Assembly: GCF_012849095.1 (NCBI RefSeq)
Contig: NZ_CP051680.1
Span: forward strand, 7,436,001-7,500,000
Source of the DNA: Cohnella herbarum
Lineage (GTDB): Bacteria; Bacillota; Bacilli; Paenibacillales; Paenibacillaceae
Direction of reading: 5' to 3'
DNA: 64,000 nucleotides
The notes under the pieces are model-generated. The model was not told the origin of the DNA. It saw only the letters and a list, made by a program, of their open reading frames with translations, and searched no databases. The translations under genes and the position numbers were made by a program. Shown here piece after piece: positions 22,851-51,228 of the stretch (its first letter is position 1; the number at the start of each line of letters is the position of its first letter).

Positions 22851-22870
22851 GAATGATGTTCCTCCCTTGT

Positions 22871-22980
22871 TTGCCTGCGGAGTTAGCTGTCGGGTTAGGA
22901 CCAAAGTTGCCCCGCCGCATGTTGCGCGGCTTCACCCCATGGTGGTGGGTTCTCCGCGTCCGTTGTGGACTTCGGCTGGA
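22871..22980 (-). promoter_or_regulatory. c-di-AMP riboswitch (ydaO/yuaA type)
   Basis: On the minus strand the conserved pieces occur in order: GCCGAAGTCC with a small hairpin, GCGGAGAACCCA, GGGGTGAAGCCGC, and CCGACAGCTAACTCCGCAGG. These are the hallmark segments of the ydaO motif, which senses cyclic di-AMP and usually shuts off wall-hydrolase and potassium-transport genes. The aptamer ends about 4 bases before the GGGAGG of the CAP gene, and no separate terminator hairpin is visible, so control of translation initiation is likely. Confidence 0.85.
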
Positions 22981-23205
22981 ATATCTCAAAGTCTATCAGC
23001 TAGCGGAAGCGAAATCATTTCATAAATCCTGCCAAGCGGAACGATCGACGCCCGTTTTTGTTGACTTGGCGGCGTTTAGAATCTCAAATAATATTATTCT
23101 CATAATCCATTAAGCAGGAATTCCCAGTAAAAAAGGCGAATGTATATTCGTATAAGGGTGGCGAGACTAAACCGGCATTGCACGTAAATCGAAGGGAGCA
23201 AAAGA

Positions 23206-28865: not shown

Positions 28866-29917
28866 ACGAAGCGAACGTAACGGCGGCGGATTCATCCGCT
28901 AGCGATTACTTGCTTCTCGCGATAGAGACAAGCTGCGATGAGACGTCCGTCGCGGTCGTGCGGAACGGAAGGGAAATCTTATCGAATATCATTTCGAGCC
29001 AGATCGAGACGCATAAGCAATTCGGCGGGGTAGTTCCCGAGATTGCATCGCGCAAGCACGTGGAAAGCATTACGCTCATTCTCGAAGAAGCTCTTCGAGA
29101 AGCGAAGATTAGCTTGCCGGAGATCGATGCGGTTGCGGTCACGCAAGGGCCGGGTCTGATCGGCGCGTTGTTAGTCGGGGTCGTCGCGGCCAAAAGCTTG
29201 TCGTTGGCGCTGGACGTTCCGTTGATCGGTACTCATCATATCGCGGGACATATTTATGCCAATCATCTGATCGGAGATATCGTCTATCCGGCGATTGCCC
29301 TTGTCGTGTCCGGCGGACATACGGAAATCGTCTTGCTGGAGGAAGAAGGCAAATTCCGCGTGATCGGCCGGACAAGAGACGATGCGGTAGGGGAAGCCTA
29401 TGATAAGGTGGCACGGGCGCTTCAGTTTCCTTATCCGGGAGGTCCCTACGTGGACAAGCTTGCCCAAGAAGCGACGGAAGAGATTGTTTTGCCTCGCTCT
29501 TGGCTGGAGCCGGACAGTTACGACTTCAGCTTTAGCGGGTTGAAATCCGCGGTGCTGTCGGAGATTAACCGTTCGCGCATGAAAGGGGAATCCCCGGATT
29601 TCTCCGCATTGGCTCGCGGGTTCCAACAATCGGTTATCGACGTGGTCACAAGCAAAGCCGTTAGAGCCGCCAAGGAGTTCGGCGCTCGTCAAATGCTTCT
29701 ATGCGGAGGCGTCGCGGCGAATCGAGGCTTACGCGATAGGCTTAGCTCGCTGTGCGAGGAAGCGGGATTACCTCTGCTTATTCCGCCGAATAAGCTGTGT
29801 ACGGACAATGCGGCGATGATCGCCGCGGCCGCGGATTTGAAATGGCGACGGGGCCAGTATTCATCGCTGGATCTGAAGGCGGAGCCGATCTTGTCTCTTG
29901 AAGATTGGTCTGTCTAG
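28862..29917 (+). CDS. tsaD: tRNA N6-adenosine threonylcarbamoyltransferase TsaD
   Basis: A 351-residue Kae1/Qri7 protein. Visible motifs are AIETSCDETSVAVV, the metal-binding HHIAGHIYAN (H-x3-H), VVSGGHTEIVL, GGPYVDKLA and the late CTDNAAMIA. It transfers the threonylcarbamoyl group to tRNA A37. It ends the conserved operon. In B. subtilis the next gene is the ABC-F ATPase; here about 5 kb with leuA, an IS element and repeats separates them. Confidence 0.96.
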   Translation: MNEANVTAADSSASDYLLLAIETSCDETSVAVVRNGREILSNIISSQIETHKQFGGVVPEIASRKHVESITLILEEALREAKISLPEIDAVAVTQGPGLIGALLVGVVAAKSLSLALDVPLIGTHHIAGHIYANHLIGDIVYPAIALVVSGGHTEIVLLEEEGKFRVIGRTRDDAVGEAYDKVARALQFPYPGGPYVDKLAQEATEEIVLPRSWLEPDSYDFSFSGLKSAVLSEINRSRMKGESPDFSALARGFQQSVIDVVTSKAVRAAKEFGARQMLLCGGVAANRGLRDRLSSLCEEAGLPLLIPPNKLCTDNAAMIAAAADLKWRRGQYSSLDLKAEPILSLEDWSV

Positions 29918-30010
29918 GGAAATTCTAACCTATCAGACATACATGCCGCTAAACGGCATCGCTGATGAATGAAAATGTTGTCCATGCTTAATGCTGGGGC
30001 TGCATCAAAT

Positions 30011-30193
30011 AACGTTATCTTGTATCGCTATCGTCCCCAAAGTAACTCCGATATTCGCAATAACGTTTTGCCATAACGTTAACTCATATCAGAAAAAGAA
30101 AATAGACAGATTTCAAAGAACTAACGTTATGCCATAACGTTAGTGGACCCCGAAGCCATCTGAAGAACCGAGATAACGTTATTCCATAACGTT
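30011..30193. repeat. Array of AACGTT palindromes
   Basis: Seven AACGTT cores lie at 30011, 30062, 30075, 30123, 30136, 30175 and 30188. The last six form three pairs with exactly 13 bases from core to core. Each pair reads approximately TAACGTTnTnCCATAACGTTA, a 21-25-bp palindrome. Successive pair starts are 51 to 61 bases apart. The array lies between tsaD and the leuA promoter. No gene was found from 29918 to 31144. Confidence 0.75.
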
Positions 30194-30355
30194 ATCTCAC
30201 ACCTCTCTGAAAGATGGGGGAGATACATTGTCGTATGCTGACGAAACAGCGGATGTTCTATCCGTTCTGGAATGAATAGAGTCACGCTTGAAGGCGGACA
30301 TGATTTGTACTCATAATGACAGCAAATAGAAAATCAACAAATGAGGAAAATTGAA

Positions 30356-30389: not shown

Positions 30390-30702
30390 ACAATCCCGCA
30401 AGGGAATAAAGCTTAGAAACGCGATGAACAGGAACAGTAGGGCAAACCCGGAATACAGAGAGCTGCGGGACGGTGCAACGCAGCGGATGGGAACCTGAAA
30501 CTCGCCTGGGAGCGGATGAATGGAAACACGCGGAAGAAAGATTGTCCACTGCGTACATTCTTACGGTTAACCCCCGTGATCGGGTCCGAGCGGATATTTC
30601 TTGCCGAATTGAACGGCATATGGAAATATCAACGAGAGTGGTACCGCGGATGGCTAATTTAGCCCGCCGTCTCTTATATAGAGATGGTGGGCTTTTATAT
30701 TT
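30390..30702 (+). promoter_or_regulatory. T-box riboswitch 1 (leucine specifier)
   Basis: This T-box leader has the stem I segment AGAGAGCTG...GGTGCAACGCAG, a likely specifier CTC at 30501-30503, the T-box sequence GAGTGGTACCGCGG (30636-30649) and a terminator GCCCGCCGTCTC / GAGATGGTGGGC with TTTTAT (30662-30696). Uncharged leucyl-tRNA would favour the antiterminator. The specifier is read by alignment with the second element. Confidence 0.85.
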
Positions 30703-30708
30703 GTATAC

Positions 30709-31031
30709 GCAATGAACGGGAGTAGTAGGACATTCCTCGGGATCAGAGAGCTGCGGGCCGGTGCGACGCAGTCGAAGAGGGAACCGAACTCGCCCGGGAG
30801 CGGAACGGTGGAATCGGATTCGGCGTATTATTCAGCCGGCTTCAGGTACATCGATTCGGTTGGCCCCCGATATAGGGCGCTCGCTTATCTTCGATCGACC
30901 GAACGGTCGAAGGTGGCGCACAAGTGGGAGGATCCGTTCGTCCGTCGGAAGACGAACCCCTCCAAGCGGAGTGGTACCGCGGCGGCTTACAAGCCCGTCG
31001 TCTCTAGCCTTAAGAGACGACGGGCTTTTTG
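30709..31031 (+). promoter_or_regulatory. T-box riboswitch 2 (leucine specifier)
   Basis: This is a second complete T-box directly after the first: AGAGAGCTG and GGTGCGACGCAG, GAACTCG with specifier CTC at 30789-30791, AGTGGTACCGCGG (30970-30982), and a strong terminator AAGCCCGTCGTCTCT / AGAGACGACGGGCTT plus T-run (30991-31030). Both must be read through to express leuA. Confidence 0.88.
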
Positions 31032-33016: not shown

Positions 33017-33055
33017 TGGACCTCTGTCAAGAAAGTGGACACGCTATAAGAGCGT

Positions 33056-33892
33056 TTATTTAATACTGCTATAGTACTGAGCTTCGAATTGCGAAGGTGA
33101 TAAGTAACCTAGCGAACCATGTATTCTCTTACGGTTGTAGAAGAGCTCAATATATACAAACATCTCTTGTTGCGCCTGCGCCTTCGTTTGAAATTTCGTA
33201 CAGTAAATAAACTCCTTCTTCAGCACGCTGTGGAACGATTCGATACAGGCGTTGTCGTAGCAGTTACCTTTGCGGCTCATGCTTGCTTCCATGCCATATT
33301 GCTTTAACCTTTCACGGTATTCATCTGATGCATACTGCGAACCCCGATCAGAGTGGTGTATAAGCCCTTTGGGAGGTTTGTGCGTACTGTATGCCTGATC
33401 AAGCGCTGCAAGCACTAAATCGGTTGTCATCCGGTCTGCGAGCTTCCAGCCCACAATCTTACGGGTATATAAATCCAGAACGCTGGCGAGGTACAAACGA
33501 CCTTCACGGCACGGTATATAGGTAATATCGGTTACCCAAATCTTGTTAGGTGCAGTCGTCTTAAAATCCTGATTCAGCACATTTGGTGCTATAGGTTGAT
33601 CGTGATTCGAGTCAGTGGTGGTCACTCGGAATTTCTTAGATACACAAGAACGTAAACCATTCTCATGCATGATTTTCCCTACTAAACGTTCAGAAACTGT
33701 CCAACCTTCTTTTCGTAGAAGTTTTGTGATTTTAGGGCTACCATACCTGTTGTGAGCGTCTAGGAAAAGCCAGGTGATTCGCGCCAATAGCGCTCTGCGA
33801 CGCTTCTGATAACTGTTCTGGACGGTCTTCTCCAGAAGCCATTTATAGTAACCGCTCCGTGATACACATAGAACTGTGCACATCTTCTCCAT
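33056..33892 (-). CDS. IS3-family transposase OrfB (DDE integrase)
   Basis: A 278-residue rve-type catalytic domain: an N-terminal HTH-like part, then WVTDITYIP (first Asp), [10 protein letters not shown] (second Asp) and [15 protein letters not shown] (Glu). It catalyses transposition. The frame is open further upstream as far as the orfA end and lies at -1 relative to orfA, so the active enzyme is probably an OrfAB fusion made by -1 frameshifting at an AAAG/AAAGG run near 33940-33950. Confidence 0.92.
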
Positions 33893-33930
33893 TCGAAACT
33901 CGGAGCGATGATCTTCGATGAATTGGAACC

Positions 33931-34227
33931 TTAGTTCCTTTCTTTGCTGAAGATGTGCATGGCCTTTTTTAGGATAGCGATTTCTTCCTTGAGATCCTCA
34001 ATCGTGCGTTCTTGCTCCATCAGTTGCTTATCTTTCTGGTGAAGGGTCGCACGATCTACAAGCGGTTCATTCTCAAACTTGCGGTACTTGGTCATCCACT
34101 GTTTTAACGTACCACTTGGGATGTTTAAATCTTCTCCGATCTGGGGCAATGTCTTTGTCTGTTCCTGAATGTATTTAACAGTCTGTTCTTTAAACTCTTC
34201 ACTGTAACGCTGTCTCTTCTCACCCAT
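33931..34227 (-). CDS. IS3-family transposase OrfA
   Basis: A 98-residue protein with an HTH_Tnp_1 domain ([29 protein letters not shown]) and a C-terminal leucine-zipper-like helix ([15 protein letters not shown]). It binds the IS ends and regulates transposition. ATG 34227 follows GAGGTG by 6 bases. An in-frame GTG at 34236 is an alternative. Confidence 0.9.
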
Positions 34228-34440
34228 ACCGGACACCTCATCTTCTTATTGTTTTTTATTATCTGTTAGTTCTTATGAGGTGTCCACTTTCTATTCTAGC
34301 TGCAGTACAGCCGTTAGATTTTGAAAAGTACCTTTTTGGACGGAATAACGGCTTGTACTTCCGTAAGACATAAGCTTTAATGCGTCAGGCGCTGATTAGG
34401 GGATGGAACCCGAATCCACTCCTCCTATTTCAGAAGAGTA

Positions 34441-34640
34441 AGACGACCGATTTTCCGTCTATCTCATCTGGTTTAAGCCCTTCTGCCGGGTGAGATCGAT
34501 AGATTTTCCGTCTAACTCCTCTGGTTAAGCCCTTCTGCCGGGCAAGATCGCCGGATGTTCCGTCTAACTCCTCCGATCAAGCGCTTCAGACGAGTGAGTC
34601 AGACGGTTTATCCGTCATCTCCTCTGAGTTGCCAGAGCTT
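34441..34640. repeat. Degenerate 52-53-bp tandem repeat, about four copies
   Basis: A TTCCGTCTAACTCCTCTGG-like core recurs with its CGTC at 34456, 34509, 34561 and 34613, giving periods of 53, 52 and 52 bases. CCCTTCTGCCGGG is shared by the first two units. There is no coding frame across it. Confidence 0.7.
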
Positions 34641-34685
34641 CTTAAAGTGGCCGCATTCCTTTACCAATTGCGGGAATTTAGACGC

Positions 34686-34954
34686 TGTGGACAAACTTAT
34701 CCACAATGCCTGTGCATACTGTGGACAAGGTCGAAAAACCGTTGATACATCAGCAATGAAAGAAAATCGAGAATCGGATTATTTTTTCACAAATGAAGTG
34801 TGGACAGTGTGGGTAATGTGGATAAATCGGTGGAAAACTATGGCTCTTCGCAAAAAGTGACAAAAAAAGCTTGCGTATCAACGATTCGAAAGGGAACGAT
34901 GGGCCCCTTAAACGGCTCTTGAGATACGCAAGCTGTGTATAACTGTGTGCATAA
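34686..34954. promoter_or_regulatory. DnaA-box cluster
   Basis: Two perfect DnaA boxes (TTATCCACA at 34697-34705 and its complement TGTGGATAA at 34817-34825) occur with near-boxes TGTGGACAA at 34686 and 34720, TGTGTATAA at 34934 and TGTGCATAA at 34946. Seven such 9-mers, counting TGTGGACAG near 34799, fall within about 270 bases of noncoding DNA between the tsaD-leuA region and the ABC-F gene. Confidence 0.7.
34862..34934 (-). terminator. Terminator of the ABC-F gene
   Basis: A 12-bp perfect stem, AGCTTGCGTATC / GATACGCAAGCT, has a 43-base loop with an inner AAGGG/CCCTT stem. Seven T residues follow on the minus strand. Confidence 0.65.
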
Positions 34955-34993
34955 AGATATTTGGAATCCAGACTTGTGAACGCGTACTTATAT

Positions 34994-36910
34994 TTAATCT
35001 TCCATTAAAGCTTCCCACTCCGCATAAGCGTCTTCCAGAGCGACTCTTTTCTGTTCCGCTTCGCCTTGCATATCCCTCAATCTCACGTAATCCGTAACGA
35101 CCTCGGGAGAAGCCATCTCGAGCTCGAGAGAGGTAATCTCGGACTCCAGCCTAGCGATATCGGCCTCGAGTTGTTCGCGTTTTCGCGTACGCGCGCGATC
35201 TTCCCGTTTCGCTTGCTTATCCGCTTCATAGTTACTGACGGCAGGCTGCGTTGAAGGGGAGGCACTGTCGATTTGTGACGATTCCCATTCCTTCATTTGC
35301 TCCTTTTTCGCTACCATCTCGTCATAATTTCCCAGGAAATGCGTCACTCCGTCCGGCGCCATTTCGACAATCCGATCGGCGATCCGGTTCAGGAAGTACC
35401 TGTCATGGGAAACGAAGATCAGCGTGCCATCGTATTCGTCCAATGCGGCTTCGAGCACTTCGCGGCTCATCAAATCCAGATGGTTCGTCGGTTCATCCAG
35501 CAAGAGAACGTTCGCTTTGAGAAGCATGAGCTTCGAAAGCGCGACGCGCGCTTTTTCCCCGCCGCTAAGGGCGCTTACCTTCTTGCGCACGTCGTCGCCG
35601 CTAAACAGGAAGTTGCCGAGTACGGTGCGGATTTCAGCTTCGGGCTGCATAGGATAGGCGCTCCACACTTCCTCAAGCACCGTGTTAGCCGGATTAAGCT
35701 CCCGTTGCATCTGGTCGTAGTAGCCAAGAGAGACGCCGGCGCCCCACTCGAACACTCCGGTACGCAGCGGCAGCTTCTCGATTAGCGCGTGGAGCAAGGT
35801 GGTTTTCCCGACCCCGTTGGGGCCAAGAAGCGCCAGCCTTTCCCCTCTTTTTACCTCGAAGCTAACGTTGCGAAACAATGGAGCCATCTCCGTCTTGGGA
35901 GCGGCTGAGCAATTAAAAGCCCTGAGAACTTCCTTGCCGCTGCGGCGTTCCGTAGAAAAGGAGAAACTCGCTTGACGCAACGTGTTCGGCTTCTCCAAGC
36001 GTTCGATTCTTTCCAGGGCATTGCGTCTGCTCTGAGCTCGCCTAGTCGTGGAGGCACGAACGATATTTCGCTGCACGAAGTCTTCCATTCGGGAGATTTC
36101 TTTGCGTTGTTGTTCATAAAGCTTAAGCTGCTGGGCGAAAGCCGCGGCTTTCAGATCCATGAACCGGCTATAGTTTCCGGTGTAGCGCGTTGCCGCATGC
36201 CGTTCGATCTCTACGATAGCCGTAACCGTGGCATCAAGGAAGTAACGGTCATGGGAAACGATCACCATGGCTCCTGCGTACGATCGTAAATATTGCTCCA
36301 GCCAAGTCAGCGTATCGATATCCAGATGATTGGTCGGTTCGTCTAGAAGCAAAAGCTCGGGTTGTACGAGCAGCAATCTGGCCAGGGCCAGTCTCGTTCG
36401 TTGTCCGCCGCTAAGGGAAGCCACTTCGGTATCGGGCGCGAAGCTGCCGAATCCCATCCCATGGAGGATGCTGCGGATGCGGTTATTCATTTCAAACCCG
36501 CCGTTCTCCCTGAACTTCTCGCTAACGTCCGCGTATTGGGCAAGCAAAGTCTCGTATCGTTCGGGATGTTCGAGCTCTTGGGGATCCGCGACACGCGCCT
36601 CTAAGCCTTGTAATATCCGTTCTTGTTCGAGCAGGGGACCGAACGCGGAATTCATCTCTTCCATGATCGTACGATGGCCTTGAAGTCCGCCGTTCTGAGC
36701 AAGGTAGCCGACTTTAAGCTCCCTAGGCTTCGAAACCGCTCCGGTATCGGCGGTCAGTTCTCCGGCCAGGATGCGAAGAAAAGTGGATTTGCCCGCCCCG
36801 TTAACGCCGACTAAGCCGATGCGGTCGCGTTCATTGATTTGGAGCGATACCCCGTCCAATACGGGAGTGACGCCGTAATGTTTAGTAATGTTGGATGCTT
36901 GTAGCAGCAA
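34994..36910 (-). CDS. ABC-F family ATPase (YdiF-like)
   Basis: A 638-residue protein with two ABC modules and no membrane helices. Module 1 has Walker A GVNGAGKST, signature LSGGQRTRLALARLL and LLLLDEPTNHLD. Module 2 has GPNGVGKTT, LSGGEKARVALSKL and VLLLDEPTNHLD. A charged linker separates them, and a coiled-coil tail (residues about 560-638) follows. ABC-F proteins bind the ribosomal E-site region and aid translation or confer antibiotic protection. Position next to the tsaD/moaC block matches B. subtilis ydiF. It is transcribed against its neighbours. Confidence 0.92.
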   Translation of the reverse strand: MLLQASNITKHYGVTPVLDGVSLQINERDRIGLVGVNGAGKSTFLRILAGELTADTGAVSKPRELKVGYLAQNGGLQGHRTIMEEMNSAFGPLLEQERILQGLEARVADPQELEHPERYETLLAQYADVSEKFRENGGFEMNNRIRSILHGMGFGSFAPDTEVASLSGGQRTRLALARLLLVQPELLLLDEPTNHLDIDTLTWLEQYLRSYAGAMVIVSHDRYFLDATVTAIVEIERHAATRYTGNYSRFMDLKAAAFAQQLKLYEQQRKEISRMEDFVQRNIVRASTTRRAQSRRNALERIERLEKPNTLRQASFSFSTERRSGKEVLRAFNCSAAPKTEMAPLFRNVSFEVKRGERLALLGPNGVGKTTLLHALIEKLPLRTGVFEWGAGVSLGYYDQMQRELNPANTVLEEVWSAYPMQPEAEIRTVLGNFLFSGDDVRKKVSALSGGEKARVALSKLMLLKANVLLLDEPTNHLDLMSREVLEAALDEYDGTLIFVSHDRYFLNRIADRIVEMAPDGVTHFLGNYDEMVAKKEQMKEWESSQIDSASPSTQPAVSNYEADKQAKREDRARTRKREQLEADIARLESEITSLELEMASPEVVTDYVRLRDMQGEAEQKRVALEDAYAEWEALMED

Positions 36911-50606: not shown

Positions 50607-51228
50607 TCGCTTACGAAATTGAAACAAACGCATCTTTATTTTGCTCCGCGAGCAGGTTTCTGGAGAAATAAGGGTGCTGGGCACCGCTATTTCGCTCCGC
50701 GAGCAGGCTTCTGGAGAAATAAGGGCGCTGGGCACCGCTATTTCGCTCCGCGAGCAGGTTTCTGGAGAAATAAGGGTGCTGGGCACCGCTATTTCGCTCC
50801 GCGAGCAGGCTTCTGGAGAAATAAGGGCGCTGGGCACCGCTATTTCGCTCCGCGAGCAGGTTTCTGGAGAAATAAGGGTGCTGGGCACCGCTATTTCGCT
50901 CCGCGAGCAGGCTTCTGGAGAAATAAGGGTGCTGGGCATCGCTATTTCGCTCCGCGAGCAGGCTTCTGGAGAATTAAGGGCGCTGGGCACCACTATTTCG
51001 CTCCGTGAGCAGGTTTCTGGAGAAATAAGGGCGCTGGGCACCGCTATTTCGCTCCGCGAGCAAGTTTTGGAGAAATAAGGGTGCTGGGCACCGCTATTTC
51101 GCTCCGCGAGCAGGCTTCTGGAGAAATAAGGGTGCTGGGCACCGCTATTTCGCTCGTTCTCCAGCCAGTAAGGAACAGTTACAGTTATCCCTTAAGGATT
51201 ACTCATCCTTAAATCATTTCGTAAGCGA
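50607..51228. repeat. 13-bp inverted repeats flanking the 51-bp satellite
   Basis: TCGCTTACGAAAT (50607-50619) and its exact complement ATTTCGTAAGCGA (51216-51228) bracket the tandem array. Confidence 0.6.
50650..51156. repeat. Ten-copy 51-bp tandem repeat (satellite)
   Basis: Ten units of 51 bp (one of 50) begin with GAGCAGG. Each holds TTCTGGAGAAATAAGGG and a small GGTGC-TGG-GCACC hairpin. The first six alternate between two versions (GTTTCTGG with GGGTGCT, and GCTTCTGG with GGGCGCT), giving a 102-bp higher-order unit. Because 51 is divisible by three, open frames appear in several phases; none has a credible start. Confidence 0.85.

What the first reader, a model, noticed from the sequence alone, without database searches (positions are those of the whole stretch)
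34686..34954. DnaA-box cluster at the conserved tsaD/ABC-F position
Seven 9-mers equal or close to TTATCCACA lie within about 270 noncoding bases; two are perfect. In B. subtilis, as I recall, a DnaA-box cluster sits in the gcp (tsaD) region next to the ABC-F gene and helps limit replication initiation by titrating DnaA. The same chromosomal address in a distant spore-former, kept although about 5 kb (leuA, T-boxes, IS, repeats) has entered beside it, argues for selection on the cluster.
Basis: partly seen in the sequence, partly recalled or inferred. Interest (0 to 1): 0.72.

Follow-up and report, generated by a model that had tools for sequence, protein, structure and literature searches.

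The report
Conserved DnaA-binding array beside tsaD
A short stretch of non-coding DNA packed with likely binding sites for DnaA, the protein that starts chromosome copying, sits beside the gene tsaD and is found there, often with the same internal layout, in many genomes across a whole bacterial phylum, which suggests an old and probably working brake on DNA replication.

Summary
Window 34686-34954 holds seven 9-mers within one mismatch of TTATCCACA, two perfect; shuffles of the same DNA average 0.13 and never exceed 3. It is the largest cluster I found in this 8.5-Mb genome besides oriC (the search was not exhaustive). A DnaA-binding region between gcp (tsaD) and ydiF is known experimentally in B. 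subtilis. Here a box array lies at this address in 107 of 118 loci of the same order, 38 of 57 other loci and 33 of 58 genomes from other classes of the phylum; permuted 9-mers give about 0. The anchor is the 3' side of tsaD rather than the ABC-F gene. The array is ordered: a three-box block with pitches 12 and 9 bp recurs on one strand across the phylum; one spacer changes in steps of about one DNA turn; weak boxes stay weak in place. Most likely it is a DnaA-box cluster that assembles a DnaA complex and withholds DnaA from oriC. Whether it is a passive sink or, like E. coli datA/DARS, changes DnaA's state is open and testable. No binding was measured.

The parts
34686..34694 (-). box E, TTGTCCACA
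   Evidence: E is exactly TTGTCCACA in 16 of 20 stacked same-genus arrays
34697..34705 (+). box D, TTATCCACA, perfect, opposite in direction to most others
   Evidence: perfect in 15 of 20
34711..34719 (-). box C2, GTATGCACA (2 mismatches), abuts C1
34720..34728 (-). box C1, TTGTCCACA
34783..34791 (+). weak box W, TTTTTCACA (2 mismatches), in the middle of the array
   Evidence: same non-consensus 9-mer in 15 of 20; similar motif in printed arrays of other families
34799..34807 (-). box A2, CTGTCCACA (2 mismatches), abuts A1
34808..34816 (-). box A1, TTACCCACA, abuts A0
   Evidence: second member of the pitch-9 tandem
34817..34825 (-). box A0, TTATCCACA, perfect
34829..34837 (-). box X, TTTTCCACC (2 mismatches), 12 bp before A0 on the ABC-F strand; X-A0-A1 is the 12/9 block
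34861..34934 (-). probable intrinsic terminator hairpin and U tract of the ABC-F gene, inside the array
   Evidence: -32.7 kcal/mol, z -4.2, 12-bp outer stem followed by a U run; the simple scan (loops of 3-8 only) did not list it
34934..34942 (-). box P2, TTATACACA
34946..34954 (-). box P1, TTATGCACA, pitch 12 to P2
28862..29917 (+). tsaD (gcp), the gene to whose 3' side the array is tied
   Evidence: TIGR03723, 419.7 bits
34994..36910 (-). ABC-F ATPase gene (YdiF position), convergent with tsaD
   Evidence: NF000355, 493 bits

Best explanation
This is the positional counterpart of the B. subtilis gcp/ydiF DnaA-box cluster: a non-coding, ordered array of about eleven DnaA boxes (seven good, four weak) on the 3' side of tsaD, about a quarter of the chromosome away from oriC. 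DnaA (I infer mainly ATP-DnaA, as measured in B. subtilis) would nucleate at the strong boxes (A0, D and the 12-bp-pitch pair P1-P2) and spread to the weak ones, giving a defined multi-DnaA complex. When the replication fork passes, the number of arrays doubles and more DnaA is held away from oriC, which delays re-initiation. Shown here: the array, its density, its address across the phylum, its orientation and spacing, and the conservation of box columns. Inferred: DnaA binding in this organism, the order of assembly, and the titration effect.
For: Density far above shuffles. The only pitch-9 tandem with <=1 mismatch in the 8.5-Mb genome (at up to 3 mismatches 74 places against 42 for the reversed control). 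Same address in 107 of 118 own-order loci; 100 permuted boxes give mean 0.06, max 2. Beyond the own order: 24 of 57 loci near ABC-F (permuted mean 0.01, max 1) plus 14 more on the tsaD side, so 38 of 57; 33 of 58 in other classes (permuted mean 0.01, max 1). Best 300-bp count before tsaD is <=2 in 27 of 27 loci, and before or within tsaD <=2 in 28 of 28. Box columns 0.90 vs spacer columns 0.60 conserved, p=4e-16. Of 169 pitch pairs the 12/9 block is top in all three samples (56/118, 6/57, 18/58) and has no match on the other strand. Experimental binding at the B. subtilis site: PMC4447404 passages. Early initiation after deleting six clusters: PMC5295017 and PMC13220808 passages.
Against: No binding or phenotype was measured. 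11 of 118, 19 of 57 and 25 of 58 loci show no cluster of at least 4 boxes in the stretch examined (in some, a short stretch). None of the six loci in which tsaD ends within about 140 bp of ABC-F (L001, L002, L008, L143, L159, L240) has one. A plain sink would not need fixed spacing or conserved weak boxes.
Confidence: 0.72

Rival explanations
1. The array is an active DnaA-state element, a counterpart of E. coli datA or DARS: the fixed geometry builds a complex that promotes ATP hydrolysis or nucleotide exchange on DnaA.
For: Fixed orientation and pitches in samples across the phylum; X-to-D distances of 121-125, 131-134 and 143 bp with none between, in 80 own-order arrays; weak boxes conserved as weak; the B. 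subtilis site recovers 16-fold more with ATP-DnaA than ADP-DnaA at 55 nM (PMC4447404 passage); in E. coli datA, spacing between sites matters (PMC4585315 passage).
Against: No biochemical evidence. B. subtilis has no IHF and no datA/DARS loci (PMC13220808 passage). Fixed spacing is also what cooperative binding alone would need.
Confidence: 0.25
2. DnaA bound here regulates or insulates transcription of the convergent genes (tsaD, ABC-F, leuA).
For: The array lies between gene ends and surrounds the probable ABC-F terminator; DnaA is a transcription factor elsewhere.
Against: It sits downstream of the genes; promoter-like sites around it are no more than chance (1 found, 1.2 expected); its immediate neighbours differ between lineages (leuA or other DNA up to about 3 kb) while the array stays.
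Confidence: 0.08
3. It is a cryptic or former replication origin.
For: Dense DnaA boxes as at oriC.
Against: No tandem TAG trio in 34600-35000, whereas the dnaA-dnaN stretch printed carries TAGTAG on its reverse strand; no dnaA/dnaN beside it; oriC is at dnaA.
Confidence: 0.02
4. Chance cluster in A+T-richer intergenic DNA.
For: The region is 41% G+C against 50% for the window.
Against: Composition-preserving shuffles and permuted-motif controls; conservation of place and layout.
Confidence: 0.01

Closest known systems
B. subtilis gcp/ydiF DnaA-binding region, counted among the DnaA-box clusters outside oriC (Okumura et al. 2012, not held; Smith & Grossman 2015, PMC4447404, passages)
   Same: Same address between the 3' ends of tsaD (gcp) and the ABC-F gene; about ten boxes.
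   Different: 5.1 kb lies between the two genes here. B. subtilis has six clusters outside oriC; here, besides this one, I saw only a small four-box group (L263) in an incomplete search. The position is 0.245 of the chromosome from dnaA here and 0.14-0.16 in two genomes of genus g51, which I take to be Bacillus-like.
E. coli datA
   Same: Non-coding DnaA-box cluster away from oriC that lowers initiation; spacing between protein sites matters (PMC4585315 passage).
   Different: datA needs IHF and promotes DnaA-ATP hydrolysis; no IHF site was sought here and no hydrolysis was tested.
E. coli DARS1/DARS2
   Same: Ordered groups of DnaA boxes conserved in place (PMC4585315 passage).
   Different: They reactivate ADP-DnaA; the layout was not compared in detail.
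Paired DnaA boxes 2-3 bp apart in E. coli (PMC11317965, passages)
   Same: Pitch 12 (3-bp gap) between P1-P2 and X-A0 fits the measured pair rule.
   Different: The abutting boxes at pitch 9 are a further arrangement seen here.

Membership tests
DnaA-box cluster (DBC), gcp/ydiF type | Several DnaA boxes in a few hundred bp outside oriC | tested here: met
   Seven at <=1 mismatch in 269 bp; dnaA is 2.04 Mb away
[quoted passage not shown]
   tsaD ends at 29917, ABC-F ends at 34994, convergent; leuA and an IS lie between
DnaA-box cluster (DBC), gcp/ydiF type | Stable, cooperative DnaA binding | not testable with these tools
   Seen in print for B. subtilis
DnaA-box cluster (DBC), gcp/ydiF type | Removal of the clusters advances initiation | not testable with these tools
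   Reported for the six B. subtilis clusters together
datA | IHF-dependent stimulation of DnaA-ATP hydrolysis | not testable with these tools
   No binding or enzyme data; IHF is absent from B. subtilis by review
datA | Conserved spacing between protein sites | tested here: met
   a similarity of design, not membership
Replication origin (oriC) | DnaA-trio and unwinding element next to the boxes, by dnaA/dnaN | tested here: not met
   No TAG repeat in 34600-35000 and no dnaA/dnaN neighbour. The richest 30-bp A+T stretch is 73%, equal to that of the dnaA-dnaN stretch, so A+T content does not discriminate
DARS | Core of three boxes in fixed arrangement that releases ADP from DnaA (recalled) | not tested
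   The 12/9 three-box block was not compared with the DARS core

The most novel reading that the evidence does not exclude
The array beside tsaD is an ancestral, phylum-wide control element of Bacillota: a DNA-helix-phased scaffold that builds one defined DnaA complex and actively sets how much initiation-competent DnaA is available, the missing counterpart of datA/DARS in bacteria that, like B. subtilis, lack Hda, SeqA, DiaA and IHF.
Probability: 0.3. Interest if true: 0.87.

Novelty: new member of a known kind. Interest (0 to 1): 0.66.

Why it matters
DnaA-box clusters in B. subtilis are described as sequestering DnaA (PMC11019786 passage), and a 2026 review says that whether B. subtilis has regulators balancing DnaA-ATP and DnaA-ADP is unknown (PMC13220808 passage). 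One cluster whose place, strand and spacing recur in samples from order, class and phylum is hard to explain as a mere count of binding sites. It gives a concrete element, with named boxes and spacers, on which sink and active-complex models predict different outcomes, and a signature (tsaD 3' side, 12/9 block) to look for in other Bacillota genomes.

Tried and rejected
(1) A first spacing count gave 109-113, 119-122 and 131 bp between the tandem pair and box D. Part of the 111-versus-120 split came from choosing the wrong two boxes of a pitch-9 triplet, so I discarded it (and, which rests on it) and used the count anchored on box X.

(2) A 10.5-bp periodicity of pair pitches is the best period in the class set (permutation p 0.0005, the smallest possible with 2000 shuffles) and the phylum set (p 0.0035), but not in the own-order set (p 0.54). 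The shuffle ignores that neighbouring pitches are correlated, so these p-values are optimistic.

(3) The conserved TGTGAAAAA...TTTTC motif in the middle of the array first looked like a site for a second protein. It reads as an inverted weak box next to a degenerate forward box, so no second factor is claimed.

(4) Other places in this genome with close boxes (L112, L113, L262, L264-L266) are not comparable clusters; L263 has four boxes in about 45 bp.

(5) A conserved distance to oriC: 32 single-chromosome genomes lie at 0.072-0.281 of the chromosome from dnaA, 18 on one arm and 14 on the other. This is descriptive only: gene order near oriC is conserved anyway (my general knowledge), and not all 32 were shown to hold the array (L175, genome G161, lacks it within 4 kb).

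(6) The search for related loci returned mostly distant ABC-F proteins because of a common peptide pattern. Only five of its 80 loci (L001, L002, L003, L007, L008) went into the counts, chosen because one search found tsaD convergent nearby; L018, the sixth with tsaD, was left out because its tsaD lies on the same strand before ABC-F.

(7) Rows not counted: same-genus G009 and G022 (partial ABC-F matches, not fetched) and G017 (no match); L202-L208 (own order, not used); L218 (contig end); order-level matches for which no downstream DNA was fetched.

(8) Named B. subtilis sequence could not be fetched: the control genomes gave no loci.

Full report
OBSERVATION. Two are perfect, five have one mismatch, and four further boxes with two mismatches lie among them. 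Shuffles of the same 333 bp give a mean of 0.13 such boxes and at most 3 in 2000 trials. In the whole genome (8.52 Mb, two contigs; the window is C1:7436001-7500000) there are 36 perfect boxes against 20 for the reversed pattern and 119 TTATNCACA against 114. Boxes are not much enriched in general; they are concentrated. One search listed 100 of the 119 TTATNCACA; in that part only oriC has three or more in 300 bp. The remaining 19 include the four of this array, and I cannot exclude a cluster among the other 15. Two TTWTNCACA in the same direction within 30 bp occur four times in the genome (control 0), once here. A convergent pair within 30 bp occurs at three places (control 1): oriC, C1:5026647 and here. 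A pitch-9 tandem with at most one mismatch occurs once, here (at up to three mismatches 74 places against 42 for the control). oriC was located by dnaA/dnaN and its own boxes. A small group of four boxes in about 45 bp lies at C1:5026635-5026678 (L263).

SURROUNDINGS. Profiles identify thiL, tsaE, tsaB, rimI, tsaD, then leuA, the IS3 transposase, the ABC-F gene, moaC and groES. This is the B. subtilis gene order as I recall it, with leuA and the IS added. The ABC-F gene is followed by a strong hairpin with a U run, taken as its terminator, which lies inside the array between the pair P1-P2 and box X; the simple terminator scan, limited to short loops, lists none. In 30 same-genus loci the flank of up to 1.5 kb beyond ABC-F includes leuA in 14, so leuA is an old neighbour; the IS is seen only in the own locus there and is probably recent.

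CONSERVATION OF THE ADDRESS. I examined the DNA downstream of the ABC-F gene in 118 loci of the same order: 34 of the 36 same-genus genomes that matched (own genome included), 28 best matches handed out, and 56 fetched by me to cover genera. My scripts call this order Paenibacillales, which is my inference, not a tool result. 107 of 118 hold at least four boxes (<=1 mismatch) in 300 bp; 100 permuted 9-mers give a mean of 0.06 and a maximum of 2 loci. Of the 11 misses, four had less than 1.5 kb of sequence. For other families of the class I examined 57 loci: 40 fetched by me as family representatives from the matches, 12 loci of one family with 1.5 kb only, and 5 named loci picked because tsaD is near (Marinococcus luteus, Shouchella miscanthi, Paucisalibacillus globulus, Staphylococcus intermedius and Soehngenia longivitae, which I recall to be a clostridial organism). 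24 of 57 have the array (permuted mean 0.01, max 1). By the rows these are 22 of the 29 loci with tsaD in range and 2 of the 28 without. In 27 genomes I then looked on the tsaD side instead. 16 of 27 have an array within 1.5 kb of the tsaD 3' end, 14 of them new, while the best count before tsaD is at most 2. In four of these (G216, G219, G295, G329) tsaD and ABC-F are about 9-21 kb apart. The anchor is therefore tsaD. Together 38 of 57; eight of the remaining 19 were not re-examined from the tsaD side.

Outside the class, 60 of 61 phylum genomes gave tsaD. Two of those are the own and a same-family genome. In the other 58, from 52 families, 33 have at least four boxes in 300 bp downstream of tsaD and 41 have at least three; permuted 9-mers give a mean of 0.01, maximum 1. 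The DNA before and within tsaD never exceeds two in the 28 loci for which it was held. 25 of 58 show no cluster of at least 4 boxes in the stretch examined (mostly about 1.5-1.7 kb; two are under 0.9 kb).

ORDERED ARCHITECTURE. Read on the ABC-F strand, the same-genus arrays run P1-P2 (pitch 12), terminator, X-A0-A1-A2 (pitches 12, 9, 9), weak W, C1-C2 (pitch 9), inverted D, E. I stacked without gaps the 20 same-genus arrays (of 34) whose X-to-D distance is 132 bp. The 81 box columns have a mean top-base share of 0.90 and the 68 spacer columns 0.60 (p=4e-16; the 9 columns of a degenerate box beside W were left out of both). Boxes that are not consensus keep their non-consensus sequence: W is TTTTTCACA in 15 of 20, E is TTGTCCACA in 16 of 20, X is TTTTCCACC in 12 of 20. 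A template anchored on X fits 80 of 118 own-order loci; 38 do not fit. In the 80, the X-to-D distance is 121-125 bp in 16, 131-134 in 62 and 143 in 2, with none between. Short and long forms occur inside four genera of one family (g1, g2, g3, g5) and between genera of another (f6), so a change of about one helical turn has probably happened repeatedly. The P-to-X distance, measurable in 65, also falls in groups (42; 52-55; 85-86; 93-95; 103; 105-109). A scan of 169 pitch pairs finds the 12/9 three-box block on top in each sample: 56 of 118, 6 of 57 and 18 of 58; the reverse order 9/12 is second in the phylum sample (11 of 58). On the opposite strand the 12/9 block has no match in any of the three samples. 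The class and phylum samples also show a 10.5-bp period of pair pitches (p 0.0005 and 0.0035); the own-order sample does not (p 0.54). I had seen the block by eye in the first 28 phylum loci before scanning; the scan itself covers all pitches from 8 to 20.

POSITION. In 32 single-chromosome genomes the ABC-F end of the locus lies 7-28% of the chromosome away from dnaA, on either arm. In this genome it is 24.5%.

MECHANISM. B. subtilis data suggest the function. [quoted passage not shown] Removing six clusters outside oriC causes early initiation, strong only when all six are removed and partly relieved by one cluster put back at various places (PMC5295017, passages; Okumura 2012 itself is not held). 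Against titration as the main control, about 10-fold more DnaA did not cause over-initiation in otherwise wild-type B. subtilis (PMC13220808, passage). In E. coli DnaA prefers pairs of boxes 2-3 bp apart (PMC11317965, passages), which matches pitch 12. I therefore commit to a titration array that assembles an ordered DnaA complex. The fixed geometry and the conserved weak boxes go beyond what a simple sink needs. They leave room for an active role of the datA/DARS kind, loci that are absent from B. subtilis, where regulators of the nucleotide state are unknown (PMC13220808, passages).

NOVELTY. The kind (DnaA-box cluster) and the B. subtilis site are known. I found no statement in the held library that the site is conserved across the phylum or has a fixed layout: the searches were (listings and abstract starts), and I saw passages of eight papers. 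PMC4585315 (passages) notes that DnaA-box clusters near oriC in B. subtilis and S. coelicolor can repress untimely initiation. The two papers most likely to say more are not held.

Noticed in passing
window 30415-30677 and 30703-31008 (+): Two T-box leaders in tandem before leuA; the second (79.9 bits) is below Rfam's gathering score (93), so only the first is reported at default settings.
   Followed up: partly
window 30009-30209: Six copies of the palindrome TAACGTTA, most in near-palindromic pairs, in 200 bp just downstream of tsaD. Among loci held when one search ran, only the own-genome copies (L294, L354) and two other loci (L011, L027) have two or more. Function unknown.
   Followed up: partly
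window 33030-34292: IS3-family element with 22-bp terminal inverted repeats (86% complementary), between leuA and the array.
   Followed up: no
window 34444-34578: Three copies of a 30-nt direct repeat spaced 52-53 bp beside the array.
   Followed up: no
window 50659-50960: Tandem repeat with a period of about 51 bp that carries sites two mismatches from the DnaA box in register; looks like an unrelated repeat.
   Followed up: no
window 22857-22987 (-): c-di-AMP riboswitch (ydaO/yuaA leader), 91.4 bits.
   Followed up: no
L263 1936-1979 (G000 C1 about 5026635-5026678): Four boxes (<=1 mismatch) in about 45 bp between two ORFs, about 0.4 Mb from dnaA; a possible second, small DnaA site.
   Followed up: partly
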